Below the pieces are notes generated by a model. It saw only the letters and a list, made by a program, of their open reading frames with translations. It had not been told where the DNA came from and made no database searches. From contig NC_065536.1 in assembly GCF_932294415.1 (NCBI RefSeq), forward strand, positions 18,597,974 through 18,661,973: a DNA stretch of 64,000 nucleotides, in the 5' to 3' direction. The DNA is from Quercus robur (taxonomy: Eukaryota; Streptophyta; Magnoliopsida; Fagales; Fagaceae). Below, piece after piece: positions 26,181-63,511 of the stretch (position 1 is the first letter of the stretch; each line of letters opens with the position of its first letter). A program made the position numbers and the translations under genes.

Positions 26181-26518
26181 TAACGCTGAGCTTAAATGAA
26201 AATTATTAAATATTTACCCACTCAAATGTTATGAAAATGTAAAATTTTGTGGGAATATTACTCTTGGCCTTTGGCAATAAAGTCTCACTCTTATGAAAAG
26301 TAGTAAATATTTAAATGCTTCTTATAACAGCACCGTTAGTGCGCAAAAGATGACATATATTAGGCAAATAAACTAAAGAGTAGTGGTGTTGTTGGAAAGG
26401 AGTCAAACTTTCTCTCTCCCCAATAGGAGCTGTTTTCTCTTGTCTGAGTTTTCTCTCCCATTCATTCGCTGTCTGGGATTTTCCTAGGGTTTCGACTCTT
26501 TTCTCTCCCATCACTGCC

Positions 26519-27804
26519 ATGGATCAAACAGTGGTGGAGGGTTTACTCAACCTGCATCTCACTAAAGAGGAAGAAAAGGAAATCTCAATAAAATCAAGAT
26601 GTAAGTCAGATTTACTTGAGGAATATTCCCTTAGTCTTTTCGGTCGGCTATTGACCGATAGGAACCAAAATCAGAGGGCATTGAAGAACACGATGAGGTT
26701 AGCGTGGAAGATGGGCTCAGATTTGCAGATTGTGGATGTGGGAAATAACGTCTTGCAATTCAAATTTGGGTCTGAGTATCAACTGAAATGGGTTGAACAA
26801 AATGGGTCGTGGAACTTTGACAACAATTTTCTATTGCTATGCAGATGGAGAAGAGGGCTTTCAGCTACAAATATCAAGTTCACCCATTCCCCTTTTTGGG
26901 TTCAAATATGGGGACTCCCTTTTGAGCTCATGTCGGAGGAGGTGGGCAGAGAGCTTGCCAATAGCATTGGGAGATTTATTGAAATGGATTGACAAGCAAG
27001 GCAGTCCGAACAAGCCAAATTCATGAGAATCAGAGTTGATCTTCAGTTGGACAAACCCTTAAGGAGAGGGGGCAGAGTGGCTAGTGTTGAAGGGAAAAAA
27101 TGTTGGGTTAGTTTCAGGTATGAAAGGCTCCCTGTCTTTTGTTTTCAGTGTGGTAAGTTGGGACACGATGAGAGGCATTGTCTGGAACTTCCAGACCAAC
27201 AAAATCCCAAACAATATGGTGATTGGCTTCAGGCTCAAGGGAATACAAGGCTGGGAATGGAAAGGTCTAAATCAACTAGTAGTGGAGAATAAGATGGTGG
27301 TAGCGAGGGTAGGATTGAAGAAAATACAAACACTACAACTAAATTCTCTGCTGGTTTAGTCTCCAACGGTGGTAAGAATCACTTCGGTGATATAGGTTAC
27401 CGGAAAATTCAAATGAAGGGAGCACGAGACAATATGACGTCAAAGTGGGTGACAGTTTTCAGGGTGCAACACGTGATTTTCTTGTTCAGATGGGATAGAA
27501 TGCTACAGGGAATTCAGAGTCACGTGAGATGGGTTTTTTCCCTTCAATTGGCATCCCACGTGACTTGGGAGAAATTAAAGGCTTTGAAGATGCACTCTCT
27601 CTAGTGGGCCGGCAAGCCCATTCTGAAAAAGAGCAAATGGAAGTGTCTAGTCCAATGAAGTGCAATGTTGGGCTTAATGAAGAAAAAAGAAGCACACCTA
27701 AGCCCACGGGCAAAGAGATAGCAAGGAAAACAAAGGCAGAGGCAAACTGGAAAAGAATTGCTAGGGAAAAAGAGAAGAATAAAAGCCTAAAGTCAGATGC
27801 CTAG
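26519..27804 (+). pseudogene. LINE ORF1 (DUF4283 / CCHC zinc knuckle), broken
   Basis: Nucleic-acid-binding ORF1 protein of plant L1 LINEs, which coats the element RNA. ATG at 26519. The first 157 codons resemble the DUF4283 N-terminal domain (WVQIWGLPFEL region). A TGA at 26990-26992 interrupts the frame. The same frame resumes and carries a zinc knuckle CFQCGKLGHDERHC (about 27138-27180), ending at 27292. The tail continues in another frame (27529-27804, lysine-rich). At least one nonsense change and one frameshift are therefore needed to explain it. Confidence 0.85.
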
Positions 27805-27959
27805 TTTTTAAGTTCTAGTTCAAAGAGGGCGGGGAAGTTAGTTTTTGAAGAAGAAGGGATAGAAGTTTCACAGAAGAAGCAATGTACAGTAACAAATACA
27901 ACTCATAATCAATTTGAGGAAGGATCAGCGGTGGCTGCAAGGCAGCACCACCAGGAGCC

Positions 27960-30900
27960 ATGAATCCCATAAGTTGGAACTGCTGGGGACTTGGGAACCC
28001 CCGGTCAGTACAAGTATTGCACGACATGGTGCGATGATGGAATCCCAAAGTAGTTTTTCTAATAGAGACAAAGGCAAAAATTCGACAAATGGAAAGAATA
28101 AAATGCAGACTTGGTCTAGCTAATGGTCTCATTGTCCCCTGTGTAGGCCGGAAAGGTGGAGTGGCTTTGCTATGGGCTAGGGAGGTAGACTTGGAGATAA
28201 AGAGCTATTCTCAGAATCATGTAGACGTAGTAATCAATGATACAGAAAAAAGTTTCAAGTGGAGACTAACAGGCTTCTATGGCCATCCGGAGACACACCA
28301 AAGATATGAGTCTTGGCACCTCATTGCTTTTCTAAATAATCAATTGTAACTTCCATGGTTATGCCTAGGAGACTTTAATGAGATATTATCTAATACAGAA
28401 AAATCGGGAAAGCTATTCGGTCCCAACAACAAATGGATGGTTTTAGAAAAGTGGTTGATTATTGTGCTTTTAAGAAATTAGGCTACTGTGGTTTTGACTT
28501 CACTTGGAGTAATATGCAAGGGGGGGATAATAGAATATATTTAAGGTTAGATAAGGCCTTTGCCAACTTAGAGTGGTTTGAAAAGTTTGGGGGTGTGCAA
28601 GTACATCATTTGCCTGATTCAACTTCTGATCATAGTGCCTTGCTTGTTTCTACTTCTATAATTCAACGACAAACCTGAGCAAAGCGTTTCCACTTCGAGG
28701 CAATGTGGGTAAAAATGCAGAGTGCAAATCTATAATTGAAAATTCTTGGGGTATGGATATTGATCTTAGCACTCCAGAGGGGGTGATGGCTAATCTCAGT
28801 AGATATGCCACGGAGTTGTCGAAGTGGAGCTCTAATGTGTTTGGGCAGATTCCAAAGAAGATCCAAGCAAAAAGAAATGAGCTGAACTCTCTGACTCTTC
28901 AAGATAAGGATGGAGCTTTAAGTACCAAAATCAACAGTTTAAGAAGAGAAATTAATGACCTTCTTGATGATGAGGAGATTTATTGGGGTCAAAGGGCCAA
29001 GGCACACTGGCTTAAGGAAGACAATAAGAACACAAAGTATTTTCACACCTAAGCCTCTAAGTGGCGTAAGCAAAACACTATAATGGGGATTTGGGATAGT
29101 CATGGCAAATGGTGTAATGAAAGAGATAGTATAGCTCAAGTTGCCATTGATTACTTTGAGAATATGTATAAAACGGCCTCCCCAACATTGATACATGAGA
29201 TAACTGCTGCTATTCCCACAAAGGTGACTGAAGAGATGAACGAAAGCCTAAACAAGAATTTCACAAGAGAGTAGGTAACCACTGCCCTCAAGCAGATTCA
29301 CCCAACAAAAGCACTCGGCCTTAATGGTATGTCTGCCATTTTTTATCATAAGTATTGGAATATTATGGGATGTAGCATTACTAATATGGTTTTAAATGTC
29401 CTAAATGGTAATATGTTTGTGGCTAGTCTTAACAGAACCAACATTGCTCTCATCCCAAAGATTAATAATCCCAAAAAGATGGTTGATTTTCGGCCTATAA
29501 GCCTCTGCAATGTAGTGTATAAGCTCATATCAAAAACCATTGCTAATAAATTTAAGGCTCTTCTTTCTCATATTATTTTAGAAAACCAAAGTGTTTTCAC
29601 TTCTGACAGGCTAATAACTAACAATGTTCTTGTGGCGTTTGAGTTAATGCACTTTCTAAATCACAAAAATGCAAGTAAGGAGGGCTATATGGCGGTCAAG
29701 CTTGATATGAGTAAGGCGTTTGACAGAGTCAAGTGGTGCTTTATTAAGGCAGTTATGGAGAAACTGGGTTTCAATTCTAAGTGGGTAAATCTTGTTATGA
29801 GATGCATCACCTCTGTGTCATATTCTATTTTAATAAATGGTGTTACTTGTGGGAATATTACCCCTACCCAAGGCCTTCAGCAAGGGGATCCTCTCTCCCC
29901 AACTCTCTTTCTCATTTGTACTAAAGGGCTTTCTGCTCTTATTCATGAAGTACCCCGTAACCAGCATTGGACCGGCATTTCTATTAGTAGGGGCTGCCCA
30001 AGAGTCACCCACCTTTTATTTGCGGATGATAGCATTCTCTTCTGTAAAGCTAGTGTTGAGGAATGTCGGGTTTTGAAGCACATCCTTCAAAAATATGAGG
30101 AAGCCTTGGATCAGAAAATTAACATGGAGAAATCCTTAATATTCTTTAGTCCCAACACATATCAAGAAGTCAAGGATGACATTTTTGCTACCCTAGGCCC
30201 TATGTAAGACTTTAGACACACGAGATACTTGGGCCTCCCATCCTTCATTGGAGGATCGAAGAAGCAAGTGTTTTCTATTCTTAAGGAGAGGATTGGGCAA
30301 AAGCTAGCTGGCTAGAAGGGTAAACTTCTCTCTATGGGGGGGAAAGAAATCCTCATAAAAGCGATAGCACAAGCAATCCCACGTACACTATGGGGTGCTT
30401 CCTTCTTCCCCAAAGTCTTTGCGAAGAAATAGAAAGCATTATGAGAAATTTCTGGTGGGGCCAAAAGCAGCAAGAAACTAAAATGAGTTGGGTAAGCTGG
30501 AAAACAATGTGTAAGTAGAAAGCAAACGGAGGAATGGGATTCAGGAATCTTCAAGCTTTTTACAAAGCAATGCTTGCTAAGCAGTCATGGAGAATTCTAC
30601 AAAACCCAAACTCTCTTGTGGCAAGGGTTCTCAAATCTAGATACTTCCCTACCGGAGATATCCTAAATGCTAAGCTTAGTAATTCCCCATCATACTCTTG
30701 GAGAAGCATCCATAGCAGCCTGGATATTATTAGAATGGGTACTCATTGGAGAGCGGGCAACGAGAAACTAATCCACATTTGGGATGACAAATGGCTACCA
30801 ACCCCTTCCACCTACAAGGTCATTTAGCCTCCAAATGACATTCCCCAATTCCCAATGGTCTCATTTCTCATTAACCCAATAACAAGGTGGTGGAATATGG

Positions 30901-32041
30901 ATTTGATAAGAGCATCCTTCATTTCCTTTGAAGCTGACACAATCTTGAAGATTCCTTTAAGTCACACCCTTCCAGAAGACAAAATAATCTGGATTGGAAA
31001 TAGACGCGGAGAATTCTTAGTTAAAAGTGCCTACCATATAGGCCACAATATGATTGAGTCAAATGATCGAGGTGAAAGTTCAAGTGGGGACTCGTGCAAA
31101 CCTTTGTGGAAAAGGCTTTGGCATCTCAACCTACCAGCAAAAATCAAGGTTTTGGCTTGGAGAGCATGTGTCAATGGTCTCCCTACTTTGGAAGCAGAGG
31201 GATTTCTCAGAATAAGGTATACCTTGTATGTGGTTATGAAGCTGAAAATATAAATCACGCTCTTATTAGTTGTGATTTTTCATCCTTAGTTTGGAACCTT
31301 TGGCTTGAAAATTCTCTTCGAATGCAAGGCTTTGGAAAGTCCTTCCTAGACTTTACATTAATTATCCTCTCTCACTTAACACCTCAAGACTTGGAGCTCT
31401 TCTTTGCCATGACTTGGGGCTTATGGTCCAATAGAAACGGAATTGTGCACAAGGATGATAGCCTTTCCCCACTTCAAGTATGGCATATGGCAAAAAATGT
31501 TGTGGATGATTATGTTTGCTCTGCCAGTTGGGATTTCGACCTAACAAGACCTGTCCCCTCTAAATGGGTTCCGCCACCCCTTGGAATTCACAAAGTGAAT
31601 GTTGATAGTGCATCTTCAGAACAAGATAATTTTTCCAGTGTGGGAGTTGCCATTAGAGACAACAATGGTCAAGTTGTGGTTGCTCTTCGCTTGCCACTCC
31701 AGTCTTATTATTCTACTAAGCTTACAAAAGTCTTTGCATTAGAGCAAGGTGTCCTTGCTCGAGAACTTCAGTTGCCTCGGGTTATCTTTGAATCAGACTC
31801 TTTAGCTGTCATTCAAGCAATCAATGATAAGGCTATGGGAAGCACCTTTGGGCACCTTATTCCGGGAATTTTTCAGGTTTGTGATTCTTTCGAGTCTTGC
31901 CATTTCAAGCACCTAAGCAAAAACCACAACACAGTGGCTCACGAGCTCGCTTAATATGCCCGAAGAACTGGAAGCCATCAAATTTGGAAAGGCGTTGCTC
32001 CTTCCTTTGTTTTGCCGTTTTTGCATTCTAATTTGGTGTAA
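27960..32041 (+). pseudogene. LINE ORF2 (endonuclease - reverse transcriptase - RNase H), broken
   Basis: Polyprotein for target-primed reverse transcription. It starts MNPISWNCWG at 27960. The endonuclease-exonuclease-phosphatase domain covers about 27960-28676 (motifs GDFNEIL and TSDHSAL). Reverse transcriptase covers about 29280-30240 (KLDMSKAFDRVKW, QGDPLSP, FADDS, then YLGLPSFIG). A zf-RVT region (WKRLWHLNLPAKIKVLAWR) lies near 31106-31165. A C-terminal RNase H domain spans about 31560-31990 (NVDSA, FESDSLAVIQAI). Stops occur at several points (for example after about 28030, 28346, 28676, 29050, 29271 and 30205), with frame changes among the three plus frames. Non-functional. Confidence 0.9.
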
Positions 32042-35363: not shown

Positions 35364-35458
35364 CACACAAACAACCAACATACAAACATATATGTAGTAC
35401 CATATAGCTGAAATCACACATAGCATAAACTATTATACTCTCTCCTCTATTGGCAAAT

Positions 35459-38400
35459 ATGTCAAGCAAAAAGAGCAGAGTGAGTGTCCACTCAAAACTA
35501 ACAGTGGTACCCAGCAAACCATCCGGGTCGGTCAAGACCAACCCGTTATCCTCGCTGGATCATGCCATGGGGCTCCATTCTCTCCACATGGTCTTTTACT
35601 ACAAGAAAAACCCATTTGGGTCCTTTGAGTTGGACCCGTTAAGGGAGTCCCTATCGGGTGTTATTTCCCTGTACCCGAATGTTACGGGTCGGTTGACTCG
35701 ATTGGAGAATGGTAACTGGGCAGTGAAGTGCCATGATGCTGGAGTTCGGGTCATACGGGCCGAAGTGAGTGCCACACTTGATGAATGGCTCAGATCTGCT
35801 GATGGGTCTGAGGAGAGAGATCTGACGGTGTGGGAGGACATGCCCCAGGAGCCCAAGACATGGTCACCCTTTCGAGTCCAGGTTATTATTTTTATATATA
35901 CACACTTTATTTTTCCCTAAAGAGAAAAAAAAAATCAAAATTTAAAATTTTAAGGAGTTCTCTTATATAGTTTAGTATTTACATCTTGTTAAAAGTATTT
36001 TCTTTGCCAAAAAGAGAAGAAGATAGAAAGTCTTTTAATATATATGAGAAAGGATTAAATATATAACAAATATACTACCTTTTTTTTTTTTTTTTTGTTT
36101 ACTTGTAATAAAATATCACCTAATACTCACGAATTGATTTTTAATTTTCCAAATTGCTTGATGTAATATCAAATATGTATGTGTGAATCATTTATACGTT
36201 TTGTTCTTTGAAGTTAAATTCTAGGGTCGAATAAGATAATATGTTTGACATTAGAGATTAAATCTAATGGTAGGTTTCCCCGTGTCATATGTTAACTCAT
36301 TTTATTTTTTTCCTTCAAAAATGTTATTTTCTCTTGTAATTTTAGAGCAATAATAAAATATCACATAAAAATATATTTTGAAAAAAAAAATCTCACATAA
36401 AAAATTTATAAAATATTTTTATAGATATTTTTTAAGTGAGAAAAATAATTTTATAATGACAAATTTTTAACATAATTGGATGAAAGGACTGAACTAAATA
36501 AATTTAAGACTTAGAGAATTTAACAAAAGTAAAATTAGAGGACTTAAATCACCCTTAAAATGTGTAATTTGCATTTTAACCTTTATGTTTTTGACATATG
36601 ACACGATATTAAAATTAAGAATTGCATTAATCACAAAGGGTTGACATATTGATTTCTAGGTACTCATGAGATTCTTAAGATTTTAGGTTGAAATCTCTAA
36701 CCAGCCTCTTAATGTTTGTGTGTATGGGGCAGAGAGGGAACTTACTTACATCTAGGAAATATTCAGACTCTTAAAAAGCTATAAACAACCTTGCCATGGG
36801 AATACTCCTATAATTGCTTTGTGTTTATGGGATGGTGGACGGGAACTTACATGCATTTGAGAAATGGTCAAACTCTCAAAAACCTATAAACAACCTTGTT
36901 GAGAGTTGAGAGGGGAAAAAATAAACTACATTCTCTAAAATATAAATTAAAAATTAGGTCATGTTAATGGATGCCTTAAGGGCAAATGTTAATAAACCAC
37001 GTTAGGAAAATTTTGATACAACTTTTATGAGAAATATAAAAAGTTGTTAACAAAATTAATTGTTTTATATATTTCTAAAAATAGTTCTTAAACCAATATT
37101 TTTAGGACACTCGTTAATATTTTTATTAAATGTATGATAACTTGAAATCCTGTGATTCAAAATTATTAAAGCAAAATTTTGGTACATAATTAGTAGTATT
37201 AATAATTTCTAAGTACTATTGGGTAGTAGTAGTAGTAACAATCAAAGTGGGTGTAATAAATATGTGAAACTTATTAATGCTTTGGCACCTGTTTTTAATG
37301 CTACTACATCTACATGCAATGGTCCTACAACTACGAGAAAGATGGGACTTTGATTAAGTGGCTCAAGCCACTTTCGGTTGTCCTACCATCATCTAGGGTA
37401 GGTTGTCTATTTCCATTATTATTATTGCCACAGTGTAGTCAAGGTATTTATTTCCATCTTCCTCTCTCTCTCACGGTATTTTTGTTTTTGAAGCTAAAAA
37501 TGTGGATTGGCCAACACATTCTTTATGGGCCACTTTGGCATGATTTGCATGGTCCATTATTCACATTTTTAAAATAATTTTTTATATTTTTCATGAAAGT
37601 GGTTTTAAAACTTTTCTAAAATGATTCATTAATAAATACCTTAAGAGCCCTTATTAACAAAATCATTTTTTATGATAAAAAAATGAATTTTTATTAACGA
37701 ATATCTTAAGAGTCGTGGTTAGGATGTATTTAATGCTTTATTAAGAATATTTTTAATATTTTTCTATTTTTTTTAAAAATAAAGTTAAATTATACGTATG
37801 TATCCAAAAAAGCACACAGAACTCGTGCATGTAAACCAATGAATTATTAACTTTATTTTTTAAAAAGTGTGCATTACAACTTATAAATGAATATTTATTA
37901 ATTTTTAACTTATATTCTTAGGACACTTAGTAACAGGTCCCACATTCATACATCAATATAGTTTGAATGTATCCTCCAATTTTGGCCTAGAATTTGTCGA
38001 ACAACAATTTTTTGTATGGATTAAGAATTCACTAACATTGTCAGCTCTCTTTTACGAGGAAAAACCAAGATTTGAATCCTCCTCTTTATTACTATCAAAT
38101 TATCTGAAATAAATAAATGTGTACTGAAGCATGGTGGCTAACTGGCCTCTGTATTAATTTTTGCAGATAAATGACTTTGAAGGGGGTGGTGTAGCTATTG
38201 GACTAAGTTGCTCACACATGCTTGCAGACCTAACCAGTGCAACCTTGCTCTTCAAATCATGGACAGAGGTTAGCCGAAGAGAACCAATTGAGCACCCACC
38301 TTTCTTCAATTCATTAGCACTCCATGGCCAACTAGTTCCAAACAAACATACACAATTAGGCAAGTACTATGCTACCAAATCTGAAGAACAGTTTCAGGCC

Positions 38401-39126
38401 TCAGTCAAAATGGCCACAGCCACCTTCAAATTTTCCAATTCAGTGATCAAACAATGCCTCTATGAAGTCAATCAAAATTGTCCTAATGCAACTCCTTTTG
38501 AGTTGCTAGCAGGACTCTTTTGGTCACGTATCACACGTTTGAAAGGTCCTAAAAGTTACAATACACATTCCCTCTCAATTTGTATAGACTCTAGGAGGCT
38601 GTTGCAAGATCCACTCCCAATTGGGTATTTTGGCAATGCATTGCATTTTTCACAACTATCATTGAAGGGAGAAGAGATAGGCCACTGTGAGTTAGGACAT
38701 GTTGTGGAGTTGGTGCACAACCGTGTGTTGGGCATCAAGGAGGAAGAGTTTTGGTCAGTTATGAATTGGTTTGAAGCACAGAAGGGAGAGGGAGGGAAAT
38801 TTGCACCACCCTTTAAAATGTATGGCCCTGAACTAACATGTATTAGCTTGGAACACATGCTTGTACCTAGCAAGGTGGCCGGAATCATCAATATGACATC
38901 AATGATTTACGCGGCAACATTTGACAAGGATGAAAAGCCGGTTCATGTGTCGTGTCATGTAGGAAATGTGGAGGGAGAAGGTTTGATTGTGGTAATGCCT
39001 TCAATGGAAGAAGGGCTTGCAAGGACAGTGTTGGTGACTTTGCCTGAGAAGGAATTGGCTGAGCTATGTGAGGACCAAGCTATCCTGCGCCTAGAACCAA
39101 CAATGCTCCTTAGTGGGAAAAGATAG
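35459..39126 (+). CDS. BAHD acyltransferase-fold protein, ECERIFERUM 2/26-like
   Basis: Two exons, 35459-35881 and 38167-39126, with a GT-AG intron of 2,285 bp after codon 141, giving 460 aa. The first ATG in frame is at 35459 (MSSKKSRVS). HMLAD at residues 158-162 is the BAHD HxxxD motif. The other BAHD hallmark, DFGWG, is absent; its place is taken by sequence around FDKDEKPVHVSCHVGNVEGEG. Segments such as CYPNVTGRL-like (SLYPNVTGRL), CHDAGVRV and LEPTMLL resemble CER2/CER26-type proteins. By family, these help the CER6 condensing enzyme elongate very-long-chain fatty acids for cuticular wax at the ER, apparently without acyl transfer. The family placement is from memory of motifs; another BAHD clade is possible. 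A broken copy lies at 53864-54069. Confidence 0.9.
35882..38166 (+). other. Intron of the BAHD gene
   Basis: 2.3-kb AT-rich intron. The phrase GGGAACTTAC(T/A)TGCAT near 36737 and 36841 lies in an imperfect direct repeat of about 100 bp (about 36700-36800 and 36815-36905). No coding sequence or clear transposon ends seen. Confidence 0.6.
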
Positions 39127-39501
39127 TCCATGTTTCTTTGTATGGTTCAACATTCAATAATGGAGTCCAAGGATATGTTAATTTGCCTATGTTTCGGCCA
39201 AAAATTATGATAATAAAACAAAGGCCTTATATCACTAGATTAATTATTAAAAAAATAGTGAAGAACAAATTCCAAAAAATATATAATAATAAAAAAGTGA
39301 GAAACAAACTGCCAACATATTTACTAGAGCATGACAGAGAGCAACCACATTGGTGCCATTCTAAAAAAGATTACATAATAATGCTACTAATTTTGCAGTG
39401 TGAATGAAATAGCTAGTTATTAGTATATCTCTGGCCATTCATCTCACAAAAAACATAGCATTATTCAATTGAAATGGATATCATCCATGTGTAATGGAGA
39501 A
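39127..39501. other. Spacer between convergent BAHD and AKR-1 stops
   Basis: 375 bp shared by the 3' ends of two convergent genes. AT-rich, no separate feature. The part from 39335 on is kept in unit 2. Confidence 0.6.
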
Positions 39502-44937
<5,436 letters not shown>

Positions 44938-45030
44938 CTTTCAAATTGCGTGTTTTTCTGTTCAAGATTTTCAATGTGTGAATCTGTTTCTAGGATGATT
45001 TCCCTTTCCATTTCTCGTTACAGTCTTAAG

Positions 45031-46819: not shown

Positions 46820-46999
46820 TTGGACAAAATTTAGTTACAAAATTTATTCTCAAAAAAGTTTAGCTACAAAATTGGTTTTAGCCTAAGATTACAACCTTAC
46901 TCAATATCTTTTTATTGGAAATGAATTTTGACAAATCCACCTGTGGGTACCTTGGATGTATTGATTTTTAGCCTTTGACTTTTACACAGCATCCTTAGA

Positions 47000-47042
47000 G
47001 TCCCACATCAAAGAGAACTTTCCCCACTTTCTACCTTATAAT
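47000..47042 (+). promoter_or_regulatory. snRNA-type USE + TATA, element A, plus strand
   Basis: GTCCCACATCA (47000-47010) matches the plant snRNA upstream sequence element RTCCCACATCG except at the last base. A 25-nt spacer follows, then TTATAAT (47036-47042). A 25-nt spacing is that of Pol III U6-type plant promoters; Pol II snRNA genes have about ten more. By analogy, initiation is expected near 47066. Confidence 0.65.
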
Positions 47043-47102
47043 CTCTGAAGTGAAGGAGTAGTGTACTATCAGAACTTCCTCCACTACTCCTTCGCTTCAA
47101 AG

Positions 47103-47145
47103 CTTATAAGGTAGAAAGTGGGGGAAATTCTCTTCGATGTGGGAC
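47103..47145 (-). promoter_or_regulatory. snRNA-type USE + TATA, element A, minus strand
   Basis: On the minus strand, GTCCCACATCG (47145-47135) is a perfect match to the plant USE. TTATAAG (47109-47103) follows exactly 25 nt downstream. Expected start near 47079, running leftward through the other arm. No run of four T lies in the downstream arm on this strand. Confidence 0.7.
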
Positions 47146-47364
47146 TCCGAGGATGCTGTGTAAAAGCCAAAGGCTAAAAATTAGCTTCAGTGCTAGGTAC
47201 CCACACCACCATTAGATTAAATCTTCATCTTATATCCTCTATGCTTGTAAAATTTCTAGAAAATTAAAGATAAATAGCTATCTCATCAATAAATTGTTTA
47301 AATTGCAAGTTTTTTGTAATTTAAAATTATGCATAAAATATAAACTTATAGATTATATAGTAAA

Positions 47365-47682
47365 TGTTAGAGATATATATTAGACATATTAGCCCAATGT
47401 AATAGGCCTAAGCCCAGTCCTGCTTGTACTAATAGTCTAGATTTAGTCGCCTATATATACTCATGTTAGGGTTCATTGTAACATAGGTTATTGTACTATA
47501 CTCTTATACATAATAAAGATATAGCCCTTAAGGGATTCTTCCGTGGATGTAGGCTGACAAGACTGAACCACGTAACCCTCGTATTCTCAGTGTTCCTATT
47601 CTATGCTTTTCCTTCCGCATCCACTCTAGCATACACAATATGATATAACACATCGCGTTGCTAATAATAATTTTATTTAACA
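47365..47682 (+). mobile_element. Solo LTR, 318 bp (copia-like size)
   Basis: Begins TGTTAGAGATAT and ends TTTAACA, flanked by an exact 5-bp duplication GTAAA (47360-47364 and 47683-47687). Inside are TATATATACTC (about 47452) and an AATAAAGATA polyadenylation-like signal (about 47512), as in an LTR. Nothing of an internal region remains. It interrupts MITE X copy 1. Confidence 0.8.
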
Positions 47683-47843
47683 GTAAATAATATCCAATTG
47701 ATACAAAATTTTACATATGTATTAAAAATGTAAATAACATACAATTTAACGGTTAAATTTTCAAAATATGTAATAATATTTATTTTATTAGGTAAGGTTG
47801 TAGTCTTAAGCTACAACTAATTTTGTAGCTAAACTTTGTCCAA

Positions 47844-48713
47844 TTTTTTTCTATGTTTTGATTGGAACTCATTTACACTAACTTAAAAAAAAAAAAAAAA
47901 AAAATAGTGTTGTGTTGGGTCAAAGTGGCATCTTCTAAAAAAAAAACCAGACTACTAACTAGGAGTGATATCGGGTTGGGTTCACAAATACCCACAACCC
48001 ATTCAAATAAAAAATCGGTTTTGCTTAGCGGAAACCCAACTCAACCCGAAAATTTGGGTCTAGGGTCAGATCTTTTTTTAATTTAAACAAAAATATATAT
48101 TTTATTTCCTTCTTGAATATATTTCCAATAATATCAAAAATTCTAAACTAATTATTGTAATAATTATTGCTTAGATTTTTTTATTCCTCCTTTAATGAAA
48201 TTTTATTCAAACACTAGTTATAGAATTATGAGCATAATTCTTGGTAATTATTGTAATAATCATTTCTTCAGAGTGTTTGACCAATTGCACAACTATAAAA
48301 TTATCTTATTTTTTAAAGAAAAAATTAAAAAAAGAAATTAAGTTTCAAGATAAAAGTTTGTATTAAGTGTTTAATTTCCTTTTAAATTCCTCTCTTAATT
48401 TATATAAGATATAAATTTTACTCTAACCTAAATACCTAATCTAAGTGTATATGTATGTGAAGCTCCCTCCTGGAAACTTAAATCATGTCCCTTGCCCCCT
48501 ATAAGCACTTATACTTGTAGAGTGACTATTGCGCTAAGGATGCATGGTAATGTAAGTTTTAGAGTTAATGTCTTAAAGTTATGCCATTTGACTAAATTAA
48601 ATACAAATATGAAGTAAAAAAAATGCACATAAAGAAAATGTAGAAAATAATAATAAAAAAATTGCATTACTTATATAGAAGTCAAGATATATATATATAT
48701 ATATATATATATT
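47844..48713. other. Non-coding spacer before foldback element B
   Basis: No gene. Bases 47865-47960 match unit 2 (61665-61745). The rest is AT-rich and ends in an AT microsatellite (about 48687-48711) that abuts element B. Confidence 0.6.
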
Positions 48714-48811
48714 TGTGGGGGATTTTCCCGCGCACGTTTATTATCTGCTTTGGGGAGCCAAGCTCGCACGGTTTTGTCCTCGACCTCGAGTATGGGAAGA
48801 CTTTGAGTGCA

Positions 48812-48822
48812 GTCCCACATCG
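48812..48822 (+). promoter_or_regulatory. snRNA-type USE, element B, plus strand
   Basis: Perfect GTCCCACATCG. The nearest TATA-like motif on this strand (TTTATAA, 48873-48879) is 50 nt away because of a partial duplication (CCCCATATCGGTTGG) between them. This arm is probably not an active promoter in the U6-like spacing, unless the CCCCATATCG variant (27 nt from the TATA) works. Confidence 0.5.
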
Positions 48823-48872
48823 GTTGGAGAAGCACCCCATATCGGTTGGTACACCATGCCTTCCTCCAAGGG

Positions 48873-48915
48873 TTTATAAGGCATGCGTGGGGCGCTTCTC
48901 CAACCGATGTGGGAC
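48873..48915 (-). promoter_or_regulatory. snRNA-type USE + TATA, element B, minus strand
   Basis: On the minus strand, GTCCCACATCG (48915-48905), 25-nt spacer, TTATAAA (48879-48873). Exactly the geometry of element A. Expected start near 48849, leftward. No T-run of four or more occurs down to the element end at 48714. Confidence 0.7.
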
Positions 48916-49043
48916 TGCAGTCAAAGTCTTCCCATACTCGAGGCCGAGGATAAAACCGTGCGAGTTTGGCTCCGCAAAGCGGACAATGAGCGTGCGCGGG
49001 AAAATCTCCCACAATATTAATAGGCAAAGTTAAGAGAAAATCC

Positions 49044-51665: not shown

Positions 51666-51679
51666 CTCCTAACAATATA

Positions 51680-51940
51680 CTCCCTCCGTCCCACTTCGTT
51701 TGTCCTCTATTCCATTTTGGGATGTCCCAAAATATTGTCCTATTTCTAAAAATAACAGTCATTAATTTACTAATGTTCCTATTATACCCCTATTTTATTA
51801 ATAATTCAATTTTTTGATAAAGTTATTTAAGGGTAGTTTTAGAAACTTATACATTTTTAAAAGGTAGACAAGATAATAAATGATGTTCCCTTAAAAAGTT
51901 TGACTTTTCAAACAGGACAAACAAAGTGGGACGGAGAGAG
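51680..51940. mobile_element. Stowaway-like MITE, 261 bp
   Basis: Inverted ends CTCCCTCCGTCCCACTTCGT (left) and CTCTCTCCGTCCCACTTTGT (right, reverse-complemented), with TA duplications at 51678-51679 and 51941-51942. CTCCCTCCGTCCC ends are the hallmark of Stowaway (Tc1/mariner) MITEs. Confidence 0.95.
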
Positions 51941-52476
51941 TATTAGACTTTTACAAACAAAAAGAAAAATACAAAAAAAATTTATTTAACTAAAGACAAT
52001 ATATTACACACACTTTGCTACAGGCGCCACTCGCACTATTTCTCTCTTGCTTTCCCTTAAAATTTTTTTAATTTTTATTTCTATTTTTATAGGAACCCTT
52101 ACACTTGTTGAATAATACTCTTTGTAGAAACATCATTTATTGGACTACGGCACATTTCTTGGATAGCGAAAGAGCAACAGATAGAGATATCACTTCTTTC
52201 TTATTGGATACCTTTATACATTCCGTTGCTTTTCTTTCTTATTGGATGCCTTATACTGTTACACATTCCGTAGCTGACCTTACGTAGACTACAAAAGAGA
52301 CAAGAAAACAAAGCATTAAATGCTACCCCCTAAAAACAAATGAAAATAGAACTGCACTAAAAGTTAGAGAAAATAGCAACAGGAAAAGTCAAGAAATATA
52401 CTTCTCTTCGCCTAATATGTATGCAAACACATAACACATGAAAAATATTTCACTGTCCAAACTAGGGTCCGGCTTG

Positions 52477-54115: not shown

Positions 54116-54670
54116 CAGGAGGGAAGGTATTTCACCTGATGTAATTCCTTTGAATGGTTGAGATTGATAGTTATAAAAAGTAACTTTCAATTTCAACCAT
54201 TGATTCAAAAAAGTTAAGAAAAATTTTAAAGAAGTAAAAAGTGAAAGTTAAAATGGTGAAAAGTGAATAAAATTTGTGAGTGAAAATGGTGAATTGCATG
54301 GTATTGCACTGGATCCTAATCCCCAATAGGAGAGTCATGAGGTACTTTGGTGCACTCATTGAAAAGATAATTAAAATATAAATAAAAAAAAGTAAGAAAC
54401 TAGATTTATTATTATAAAAAAGTGAAGAACAGACTCCAAAAATTATAAATAAATTAAAAGTGAGAAACAAACTGCCAACCTATTTATTAGTGCATGACAT
54501 ATATAGAGCAACCACATTGGTGCCATTCTAAAAACGATTACATAATAATGTTGCCTGATTTTGCAGTGTGAATGAAATAGCTAGTTATTAGAAATATATC
54601 TGGCCATTCATTTCACAAAACAAATAGCATTATTCAATTGAAGTGGACATCATCCATGTGTAAAGGATAA
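54116..54670. other. Spacer between BAHD fragment and AKR-2 stop
   Basis: No gene. The part from about 54495 matches 39335-39501, the 3' flank of AKR copy 1. Confidence 0.6.
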
Positions 54671-60608
<5,938 letters not shown>

Positions 60609-60700
60609 TTTTCAAATTGTGTGTTTTTCTTTGCAAGATTGTCAATGTCTGACTCTGTTTCTGGGATGACTTTCCTTTCCATTTCTCATTAAAGTCTCAG

Positions 60701-62729: not shown

Positions 62730-63232
62730 TAACTTCAACAAAAAAAGAAAAATCCTAGCCAACCTAATATTAAAAAAAAGACATTATTTTTGTTTTTGTT
62801 TGTCTTTGTTAGTAAATGATTGCATCTTAATGTATTTAGAAACAATGATTTTGAGTATTTATAATTTTGGTGAAAATATACTTTTGGCCTCTACATTTTG
62901 GGCCAATTTTCATTTTGGTTCCTAAATTGATTTTGCTACTAATGTAATCCCTAAAAAAAGAAAATCGATATTATTTTTGGTCCTTGTCGTTAACCTACTA
63001 ACGAAAACCTCCTACGTGGCTAGTAAAATAATATAAAAAATAACACGTTAGCATCCACGTCAGCATTTTAATAATACAAAATGCCCTAATCAGATTCAAA
63101 ATAAACCAGCTACGTTTTCCCCCATAGAGTTGAAACTTGAGAGCAAAAGCCCACTTAGTCAGGAAACATTCTCACAATTTTGAACTTTAGGGGTGGAGAT
63201 ATGGGTACATGGGAACCTTCTCTCTCTTTCTT
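62730..63232. other. Non-coding spacer
   Basis: No gene. A phrase near 62880-63060 (GGTCCTTGTCGTTAACC, CCTCCTACGTGGC) looks like a dispersed repeat but has no visible ends. Confidence 0.5.
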
Positions 63233-63511
63233 GGATTTAGATCCTCTAGATTTCCTAGGATACTCTACCAAATAGATTTTCTTAAATCCTAACCATTCTT
63301 TATTGATTTAATGGTCTAGATTCTGCCATGTCAGCATTCCACTAACAATATTCTTAATTGTTTTGTTTGTAATATTATTTTATTATTTTAAAAATATTGT
63401 TAGTGGAATGTTGACATGGCAGAATCTAGATCATTAAATCATTAAAGAATTGTTAGGATTTAAGGAAATTTATTGGTAGAGTACCCTAGGAAATCTAGAG
63501 AATCTGAATCC
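63233..63511. mobile_element. Foldback MITE, possibly Mutator-type
   Basis: 279 bp with inverted arms of about 125 bp (GGATTTAGATCCTCTAG left, GGATTCAGATTCTCTAG right reverse-complemented) around an AT-rich centre. Flanks CTCTTTCTT and CTCTTCCTC agree at 7 of 9 positions, suggesting a decayed 9-bp duplication as in Mutator-like elements. It carries no USE or TATA pair like elements A and B. Confidence 0.6.

What the first reader, a model, noticed from the sequence alone, without database searches (positions are those of the whole stretch)
46942..49013. A class of palindromic elements with TG...CA ends, 5-bp target duplications and U6-like promoters in their arms
Seen: two foldback elements 1.5 kb apart (264 and 300 bp) start TGTGGG, end CCCACA and are flanked by exact 5-bp repeats (CCACC, ATATT). 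Their arms are unlike each other except for the core: a plant snRNA upstream element (GTCCCACATCG) and, in three of four arms, a TATA box exactly 25 nt downstream. Known: RTCCCACATCG plus TATA at this spacing is the promoter of plant Pol III snRNA genes such as U6; TG/CA ends with 5-bp duplications mark retroviral-type integration. Inference: an element class that combines LTR-like integration, a foldback form and snRNA-type promoters. I do not recognise it as any named family.
Basis: partly seen in the sequence, partly recalled or inferred. Interest (0 to 1): 0.9.

Follow-up and report, generated by a model that had tools for sequence, protein, structure and literature searches.

The report
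Palindromic retroelements carrying U6-type promoters
This plant genome holds many copies of a mirror-image mobile DNA whose ends and footprints look retrovirus-like and whose arms carry the switch that plants use for the U6 small RNA gene, a combination we did not find described.

Summary
Both are near-complete palindromes with TGTGGG/CCCACA ends and exact 5-bp flanking repeats. For e1 the flanks joined without the element match 40 of 40 scored loci, 34 with no net gap, so it is an insertion that duplicated 5 bp. USE-N24..26-TTATAA occurs 489 times in the genome; the reversed pattern occurs 0 times. Of 68 merged loci, 35 had an outer inverted pair of TGTGRG ends, and 26 of those 35 an exact 5-bp repeat (1.06 expected). 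The target site is palindromic. In six e1 relatives chosen by homology, TTATAA follows 14 of 16 USE copies at exactly 25 nt, the phase of the host's own U6 genes. Some arms match, inverted, the LTR of a USE-bearing TRIM. Two elements carry caulimovirid pieces. Best reading: non-autonomous foldback retroelements related to TRIM LTRs, integrated in trans by an LTR-type integrase, with U6-type Pol III promoters firing across the centre. Insertion and promoter anatomy are shown; Pol III transcription, integrase donor and replication route are inferred. Nine answered literature searches listed no such family; no repeat library was available.

The parts
46942..47205 (.). foldback element e1, 264 bp, TGTGGG...CCCACA
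   Evidence: 111 matches in the own genome, 40 of 200 candidates scored; empty site shown
46937..46941 (.). left 5-bp target duplication CCACC of e1
47206..47210 (.). right 5-bp target duplication CCACC of e1
47000..47010 (+). USE of e1 left arm, GTCCCACATCA, one mismatch to RTCCCACATCG
47036..47041 (+). TTATAA of e1 left arm, 25 nt after the USE
47135..47145 (-). USE of e1 right arm, exact
47104..47109 (-). TTATAA of e1 right arm, 25 nt after the USE
48714..49013 (.). foldback element e2, 300 bp, TGTGGG...CCCACA, GC 0.55 in flanks of GC 0.24
48709..48713 (.). left 5-bp repeat ATATT of e2 (lies at an AT microsatellite, so weaker alone)
49014..49018 (.). right 5-bp repeat ATATT of e2
48812..48822 (+). 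USE of e2 left arm, exact; TATA at +25 lost
48905..48915 (-). USE of e2 right arm, exact
48874..48879 (-). TTATAA of e2 right arm, 25 nt after the USE
46820..47843 (.). older high-copy host repeat, MITE-like, into which e1 inserted (inverted ends 46820-46906 / 47786-47843)

Best explanation
These are members of a large superfamily of non-autonomous foldback retroelements related to the LTRs of TRIM retrotransposons. Each arm (unit A) runs from the outer end TGTGRG through an outer block, which in several families is homologous to the inverted downstream part of a TRIM LTR, to a U6-type promoter (USE, 24 nt, [T/C]TTATAA) and in intact copies 43-50 nt more to the centre; the second arm is the same in reverse. 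Shown from sequence: they insert as units, duplicate 5 bp, prefer a palindromic target (AT-n-RTWAY-n-AT), have TG...CA ends, and hold the promoter at exactly the host U6 spacing. Inferred: an LTR-retrotransposon integrase acting in trans joins the two identical ends. RNA polymerase III starts about 30 nt after the TATA, before the centre (about 12-20 nt before it in 14 of 15 palindromes measured, about 3 in the other), and reads out through the opposite arm, giving an RNA with a hairpin at its 5' end. A cDNA of it would end in a self-complementary 3' end that could prime its own second strand, remaking the whole palindrome and thereby restoring the upstream promoter that ordinary retroposition loses.
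For: Insertion: 26 of 35 exact 5-bp repeats against 1.06 for shuffled partners; 5 of 5 complete e1 relatives; e1 empty site in 40 of 40 scored loci. Target: A in 41 of 52 and T in 41 of 52 rows at fixed positions outside the duplication, from 26 sites each read both ways. Direct A...A pairs gave 1 repeat of 263 pairs tested with six inner-end strings, judged chance. Promoter: 489 places with spacing 24-26, reversed pattern 0; 61 places for spacings 27-45 together; 99 of 101 cores at 25 within the allowed 24-26; in six e1 relatives chosen by homology, 16 USE copies with at most 2 mismatches, 14 with TTATAA at exactly 25 and 2 without; host U6 genes in the same phase, start 30-31 nt downstream. 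TRIM link: the outer blocks of four of nine arms tested score above every one of 1000 letter shuffles against the reversed LTR part after the TATA; that TRIM has two LTRs, PBS-like and PPT-like tracts and its own USE-24-TTTATAA. Snap-back: centre 43 or 49-49.5 nt after the TATA in 14 of 15 palindromes, 33.5 in one; predicted RNAs of six of six younger copies folded begin with a hairpin; arms identical (0 of 152 differences) in four of six elements of one family; L102 arms share six private states.
Against: No autonomous partner or integrase was found. 33 of 68 loci lack an outer end pair under the rule used, and 9 of 35 with one lack an exact 5-bp repeat. Identical arms may simply be youth: L123/L172 are identical to each other over the compared stretch and L116/L150 differ by 0.7%. 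In the TGTGGGTACCTA family an asymmetric centre is kept across loci and arms of several elements cluster by side, so there the whole palindrome is copied rather than remade from one arm each time. e1 and e2 have no T4 inside on the transcribed side and would need one in the flank; T4 occurs on the transcribed side of the TGTGGGTACCTA family between TATA and USE. Two tRNA-primer motifs were sought in loci L102-L183 and found only in L182, an ordinary TRIM. e1 and L113 do not share the TRIM block, and the TRIM in L205 has no 5-bp repeat. e1 and e2 have lost the central hairpin. No transcript data.
Confidence: 0.57

Rival explanations
1. They are MITEs of an undescribed DNA-transposon superfamily with TG...CA terminal inverted repeats and 5-bp duplications, moved by cut-and-paste; the U6-type core is an internal passenger.
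For: Long inverted repeats, small size, no coding capacity seen, no tRNA-primer motif in the foldback loci for the two motifs sought; the whole palindrome is copied with its asymmetry in one family; no credible direct-repeat form with a 5-bp repeat.
Against: Several arms share blocks and the promoter core with the LTR of a TRIM that has PBS-like and PPT-like tracts. Plant DNA transposon superfamilies known to me (recalled) have 2, 3, 8 or 9-bp duplications. Within-element sharing of private states in L102.
Confidence: 0.25
2. Ordinary solo LTRs of TRIM or LTR retrotransposons that became palindromic after insertion by inverted duplication.
For: TG...CA ends, 5-bp repeat, unit size like a TRIM LTR (210-211 bp).
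Against: The same centre (CACATGTG or GTGATCAC) recurs at many loci with different 5-bp repeats, so the palindromic form itself was inserted; both outer ends are the same end.
Confidence: 0.06
3. The USE/TATA core is real by descent but not a working Pol III promoter: it is kept only because all copies descend from LTRs that had it.
For: No expression data; copies are related, so conserved spacing is not many independent events. The 17 sequence groups were picked by the exact core, so the conservation of USE and TATA there is by construction.
Against: The core stands in 17 groups that differ widely elsewhere, and most of the 17 also keep GTGTACCAC. Relatives chosen by homology alone keep 14 of 16 USE-N25-TTATAA. 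Spacing matches host U6 genes. By my reading about 42 of the 61 off-spacing places are C-run expansions or arms that lost their TATA. TTTT 190 against AAAA 29 in arm sense, so the transcribed side is poor in T4 (72 arms).
Confidence: 0.22
4. Satellites of an endogenous caulimovirid, copied by its reverse transcriptase.
For: Two elements with 5-bp repeats contain caulimovirid pieces between A units.
Against: Only two elements among the 68 loci; caulimovirids lack an integrase (recalled), and insertion of viral DNA into the palindrome centre after integration is equally possible. The control (ten loci within about 1.5 kb of a movement-protein match, no A unit) says little, because one of the ten is the match in L183 itself, whose A units lie further off.
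Confidence: 0.1

Closest known systems
TRIM retrotransposons (terminal-repeat retrotransposons in miniature)
   Same: Small, non-coding, 5-bp duplications, tandem and multi-LTR forms; arm blocks and USE core shared with a TRIM in this genome. Gao et al. 2016 (PMC4717578, passages read) describe tandem TRIMs and one maize element with two inverted TRIMs flanked by a 5-bp repeat.
   Different: The foldback elements have inverted, not direct, terminal repeats; no PBS seen; palindromic throughout. The terms 'palindrom', 'promoter' and 'polymerase III' had no hit in the main text of that paper.
TRIMp3: Cassandra, Helenus and Ajax
   Same: LTR-type miniature elements carrying a Pol III promoter (Kojima 2024, PMC10886601, passages and section 4.1 read). 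Cassandra is predicted to fold into a super-hairpin by self-complementarity of its LTRs (PMC7215508, passages read), a partial precedent for a folding element.
   Different: Those promoters come from 5S rRNA or tRNA genes; here the promoter is the upstream U6 type. 'snRNA' and 'palindrom' do not occur in the main text of PMC10886601. Direct LTRs, not a foldback.
Foldback elements and MITEs of DNA transposons
   Same: Long inverted repeats, multi-unit arms, arm-internal tandem repeats in one family.
   Different: 5-bp duplication with TG...CA ends and a palindromic target consensus; block homology of several families to an LTR.
Plant U6 snRNA genes
   Same: USE consensus RTCCCACATCG (PMC4448504, passages read); spacing and TATA phase identical to host U6 genes.
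   Different: No U6 RNA sequence; the promoter sits twice, facing inward, in a mobile palindrome.
Dada DNA transposons targeting small RNA genes
   Same: Only a link to snRNA genes (PMC3706591, search listing and start of abstract seen).
   Different: Dada inserts into such genes, with 6-7-bp duplications (recalled); here the promoter is inside the element.

Membership tests
TRIM | direct LTRs flanking a short internal region | tested here: not met
   Repeat-bearing copies were found by an inverted-end rule; a separate scan for direct A...A forms gave 1 repeat of 263 pairs, judged chance
TRIM | PBS and PPT | tested here: inconclusive
   TGGTATCAGAG / TGGTATCAAAG found only in L182, an ordinary TRIM; other tRNA primers not tested. 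A purine tract AAAAGG next to CCCACA occurs between units, PPT-like in one orientation only
TRIM | TG...CA ends and 5-bp duplication | tested here: met
   26 of 35, 5 of 5
TRIM | sequence kinship with a TRIM LTR | tested here: met
   Of nine arms tested, L116, L135, L145 and L183 reached by 0 of 1000 shuffles, L105 by 3, e2 by 5, L129 by 11; e1 (880) and L113 (516) do not match
TRIMp3 | Pol III promoter in the terminal repeat | tested here: inconclusive
   U6-phase USE/TATA present; activity not testable here
MITE of a DNA transposon | terminal inverted repeats, no coding capacity | tested here: met
   Inverted repeats; e1 and e2 are 264 and 300 bp
MITE of a DNA transposon | duplication length and ends of a known superfamily, or an autonomous transposase partner | tested here: inconclusive
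   5 bp with TG...CA fits none that I recall; no partner was met, but none was sought exhaustively
Caulimovirid | movement protein, zinc knuckle, RT and RNase H encoded | tested here: not met
   Of the 68 loci and the window, only L137 and L170/L171 (the two ends of L183) match the viral pieces; domains in L183

The most novel reading that the evidence does not exclude
A palindromic retroelement that solves the loss of an upstream promoter by symmetry: a U6-type Pol III promoter in one arm transcribes the other arm, reverse transcription gives a cDNA with a self-complementary 3' end, snap-back synthesis rebuilds both arms and both promoters, and an LTR-type integrase joins the two identical ends. 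The inter-unit spacers (AAAAGGGCCCTTTT, AAAAGCGCTTTT and similar, beside CCCACA/TGTGGG) would then be Pol III terminators whose oligo-U end can fold back and prime the first strand, so that replication works like a rolling hairpin made through RNA.
Probability: 0.2. Interest if true: 0.92.

Novelty: new variant of a known kind. Interest (0 to 1): 0.74.

Why it matters
It would add a foldback form to LTR-type non-autonomous retroelements and the first mobile families known to me built on an snRNA-type (upstream) Pol III promoter. Several hundred dispersed, often inward-facing U6-type promoters would be a natural source of hairpin and antisense RNAs, relevant to small-RNA silencing and to choosing U6 promoters in such plants. 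It also gives a clear test case for how a transposon can keep an external promoter.

Tried and rejected
Chance: rejected. Dada-type targeting of snRNA genes: rejected, because the motif is inside the element. The motif at 51688 and the third foldback at 63224-63494 are other MITE types without an exact USE. Ordinary solo LTRs: disfavoured, because the palindrome centre recurs across loci. Pure one-arm snap-back for every copy: not upheld in the TGTGGGTACCTA family. Caulimovirid satellite: only two elements, and the control is uninformative. A relaxed end scan of 40 loci gave 2 repeats of 1270 pairs, no more than chance; L160 is credible for its matching family ends, L146 is not relied on. Searches of viral contigs and genome contigs gave nothing or places judged chance. 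Rfam (gathering threshold) and ARAGORN found nothing in the window. The copy number of e2 could not be obtained. Literature: searches were answered (one search listed 30 of 154 papers, 12 of 13), on Tos17 targets, failed. No Repbase or plant repeat library was available.

Full report
1. e1 (46942-47205) and e2 (48714-49013) start TGTGGG, end CCCACA and are flanked by CCACC and ATATT. Each folds into one long hairpin. The three exact USE copies of the 64-kb window and one near copy lie in them. TTATAA follows at exactly 25 nt in three of four arms. The palindrome at 63224-63494 has no exact USE, so the motif is not a property of palindromes in general.

2. e1 is an insertion. Its flanks, joined without the element and one CCACC, match 40 of 40 scored loci (4000 candidates) at 88-93%. 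In 34 of the 40 the two aligned lengths are equal, so there is no net gap (my count from its table; 12 further rows are short partial matches). e1 therefore sits in a high-copy repeat whose unoccupied form is present elsewhere. For e2 no empty site was sought, and its ATATT lies at an AT microsatellite.

3. It is a large class. In the window's own genome (785.7 Mb), GTCCCACATCG-N24..26-TTATAA occurs 250 + 239 times; the reversed pattern occurs 0 times. I merged the listed places, which cover contig C1 and the first half of C2, into 68 loci. These are not all independent: L106 and L109 share flanks and L108 nearly so, and L170 and L171 are the two ends of one element. Ends were chosen without looking at flanks. 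35 of the 68 have an outer inverted pair of TGTGRG ends; 26 of the 35 have an exact 5-bp direct repeat (273-1030 bp long), one more has one mismatch, eight have more; shuffled partners give 1.06 on average, 6 at most. A few repeats lie in simple-sequence flanks (L143, L166, L181). Of the eight, one is an ordinary TRIM (L182) and one (L145) has an inner pair chosen by the rule, while its outer pair does bear GTAAT. A relaxed scan of 40 loci gave 2 of 1270 pairs, which chance could give. e1 itself has 111 matches (40 of 200 candidates scored). I picked six of its better relatives; five are complete within the stretch fetched and all five have exact 5-bp repeats.

4. The target site is palindromic. 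In the 26 sites, each read both ways (52 rows), A stands in 41 and T in 41 at fixed positions two and three bases outside each edge of the duplication; the duplication tends to RTWAY, with A or T at its middle in 50 of 52. That retroviral-type integrases favour palindromic targets, and that Tos17 of rice is a plant example, is recalled; the search to look it up failed.

5. The promoter is in U6 phase. Of 101 cores, 99 have spacing 25 and two 26 within the allowed 24-26. All spacings from 27 to 45 together give 61 places, of which by my reading about 42 are C-run expansions or arms that lost their TATA. As a check free of that selection, the six e1 relatives hold 16 USE copies with at most two mismatches; 14 have TTATAA at exactly 25 and two have none within 15-59. 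Ten upstream stretches of the 16 places matching a U6 pattern were fetched; eight have a USE-like element, in all eight followed by 24 nt and a TTTAT box, with the RNA start 30-31 nt from it; one has none and one is a fused pseudogene. The element core, written from the preceding T or C, is the same. Forty-three arms picked by the exact core fall into 17 sequence groups; most also share GTGTACCAC after the TATA and a block around GTCCGCTTTGGGGAGCC.

6. Architecture. The simplest copies are A-A'. Larger ones are A-A'-spacer-A', A-spacer-A-A', or contain more units. The centre is CACATGTG or GTGATCAC in most intact palindromes, 43 or 49-49.5 nt after the TATA in 14 of 15 measured, 33.5 in one (two further palindromes given to that call lacked a second core and were not measured). 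Between units stands a spacer beside the element end, AAAAGGGCCCTTTT in one family, AAAAGCGCTTTT in another, or halves of such (22 rows, a few of them unrelated). It combines self-complementarity with T4 and could be a Pol III terminator; this is inference.

7. Kinship. L205 holds a TRIM: LTRs of 211 and 210 bp, a 78-bp internal region beginning AATGGTATAAGAGCC and ending AAAGGGGGTGGAT, and in the second LTR ATCCCACATCG-24-TTTATAA; it has no 5-bp repeat, a U6 pseudogene being fused before its first LTR. The part of that LTR after the TATA, reversed, matches the outer block of foldback arms. Nine arms were tested against 1000 letter shuffles each: L116, L135, L145 and L183 were reached by none, L105 by 3, e2 by 5, L129 by 11, L113 by 516 and e1 by 880. 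So several families, not all, share LTR ancestry with this TRIM. Another USE-bearing TRIM lies in L182.

8. Mechanism. With a start about 30 nt after the TATA, each arm's promoter yields an RNA that begins just before the centre and runs out through the other arm. In six of six younger copies folded the RNA begins with a hairpin; in e1 and e2 it no longer does. Its cDNA would end in a self-priming 3' hairpin, which would remake both arms. This predicts arms more alike within elements than between. One family of six elements fits (means 0.8% within, 10-11% between), but near-identical element pairs in it mean that youth could explain this too; L102 arms share six private states. In the TGTGGGTACCTA family (nine elements with L102) an asymmetric centre is inherited across loci and arms of several elements cluster by side, so there the whole palindrome must be copied. 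Both routes may occur. The transcribed side has few T4 runs (29 against 190 on the other strand, 72 arms), but copies are related and one family has T4 between TATA and USE.

9. Cargo. L183 is 9333 bp, with CCCTT on both sides, A and A' at the ends (97.5%), a 2-kb inner inverted repeat (98%) and open pieces matching a viral movement protein, zinc knuckle, RT and RNase H; a protease match was below the cut-off and no integrase match appeared among the five pieces scanned in Pfam. L137/L194 has A, rearranged pieces of the same virus, a half spacer, A and A', with GTTTT on both sides. Capture before or after insertion cannot be told apart. (ten viral loci, no A unit within about 1.5 kb) does not help, since one of the ten belongs to L183.

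10. Known or new. TRIMs and the proposed TRIMp3 are the nearest (PMC4717578, PMC10886601; passages and one section read), with the predicted super-hairpin of Cassandra (PMC7215508, passages) as a partial precedent. An snRNA-type promoter in a foldback form is not mentioned in what I read. The nine answered searches listed no paper on such elements by title and abstract start, but many subscription papers and all repeat libraries are outside them.

11. Limits. One genome; sampling from two contigs; no autonomous partner; no expression data; host not named; e2 copy number not obtained.

Noticed in passing
L183:249-9581 (G000 C2:30018248-30027580): 9.3-kb element with CCCTT repeats, A and A' ends and a 2-kb inner inverted repeat holding caulimovirid-like open pieces (movement protein, zinc knuckle, RT, RNase H) separated by stops; described only.
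   Followed up: partly
L205, read on the minus strand: U6 snRNA pseudogene lacking about its first 16 nt, ending in TTTTTT, fused between an inverted LTR piece and the start of a TRIM LTR; suggests template switching or U6-primed copying.
   Followed up: partly
G000, movement-protein search: 154 matches to the caulimovirid movement protein piece (150 of 590 candidates scored; fragments and distant relatives included), many with stops: a large endogenous pararetrovirus family in this genome.
   Followed up: partly
window 39275-45026 and 54400-60697: Long tandem duplication (about 15.3 kb apart, mostly 86-94% in pieces) including an aldo-keto reductase fragment; e1 and e2 lie between the two copies.
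   Followed up: no
window 26384-31954: LINE-type element (type inferred): DUF4283, reverse transcriptase and RVT_3 pieces in separate frames.
   Followed up: partly
window 35429-39126: Two pieces matching Pfam Transferase, probably exons of one BAHD-type acyltransferase gene (name recalled).
   Followed up: no
window 63224-63494: Third foldback; its inverted ends (GGATTYAGATYCTCTAG) are flanked by a near 9-bp repeat, Mutator-like by recall, without an exact USE.
   Followed up: partly
window 51670-51945: Stowaway-like MITE (CTCCCTCCGTCCCACTTCG ends; name recalled), source of the fifth USE-like match.
   Followed up: no
L169:1100-1536 (read so that the TGTGGGGGAGG end is first): Heterologous palindrome (two different arm families) flanked by an 8-bp match ATGATAAT instead of a 5-bp repeat; unexplained.
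   Followed up: partly
L178: Copies of A separated by the reverse complement of the element's own right flank, with TTTAG beside each: an unexplained local rearrangement.
   Followed up: no
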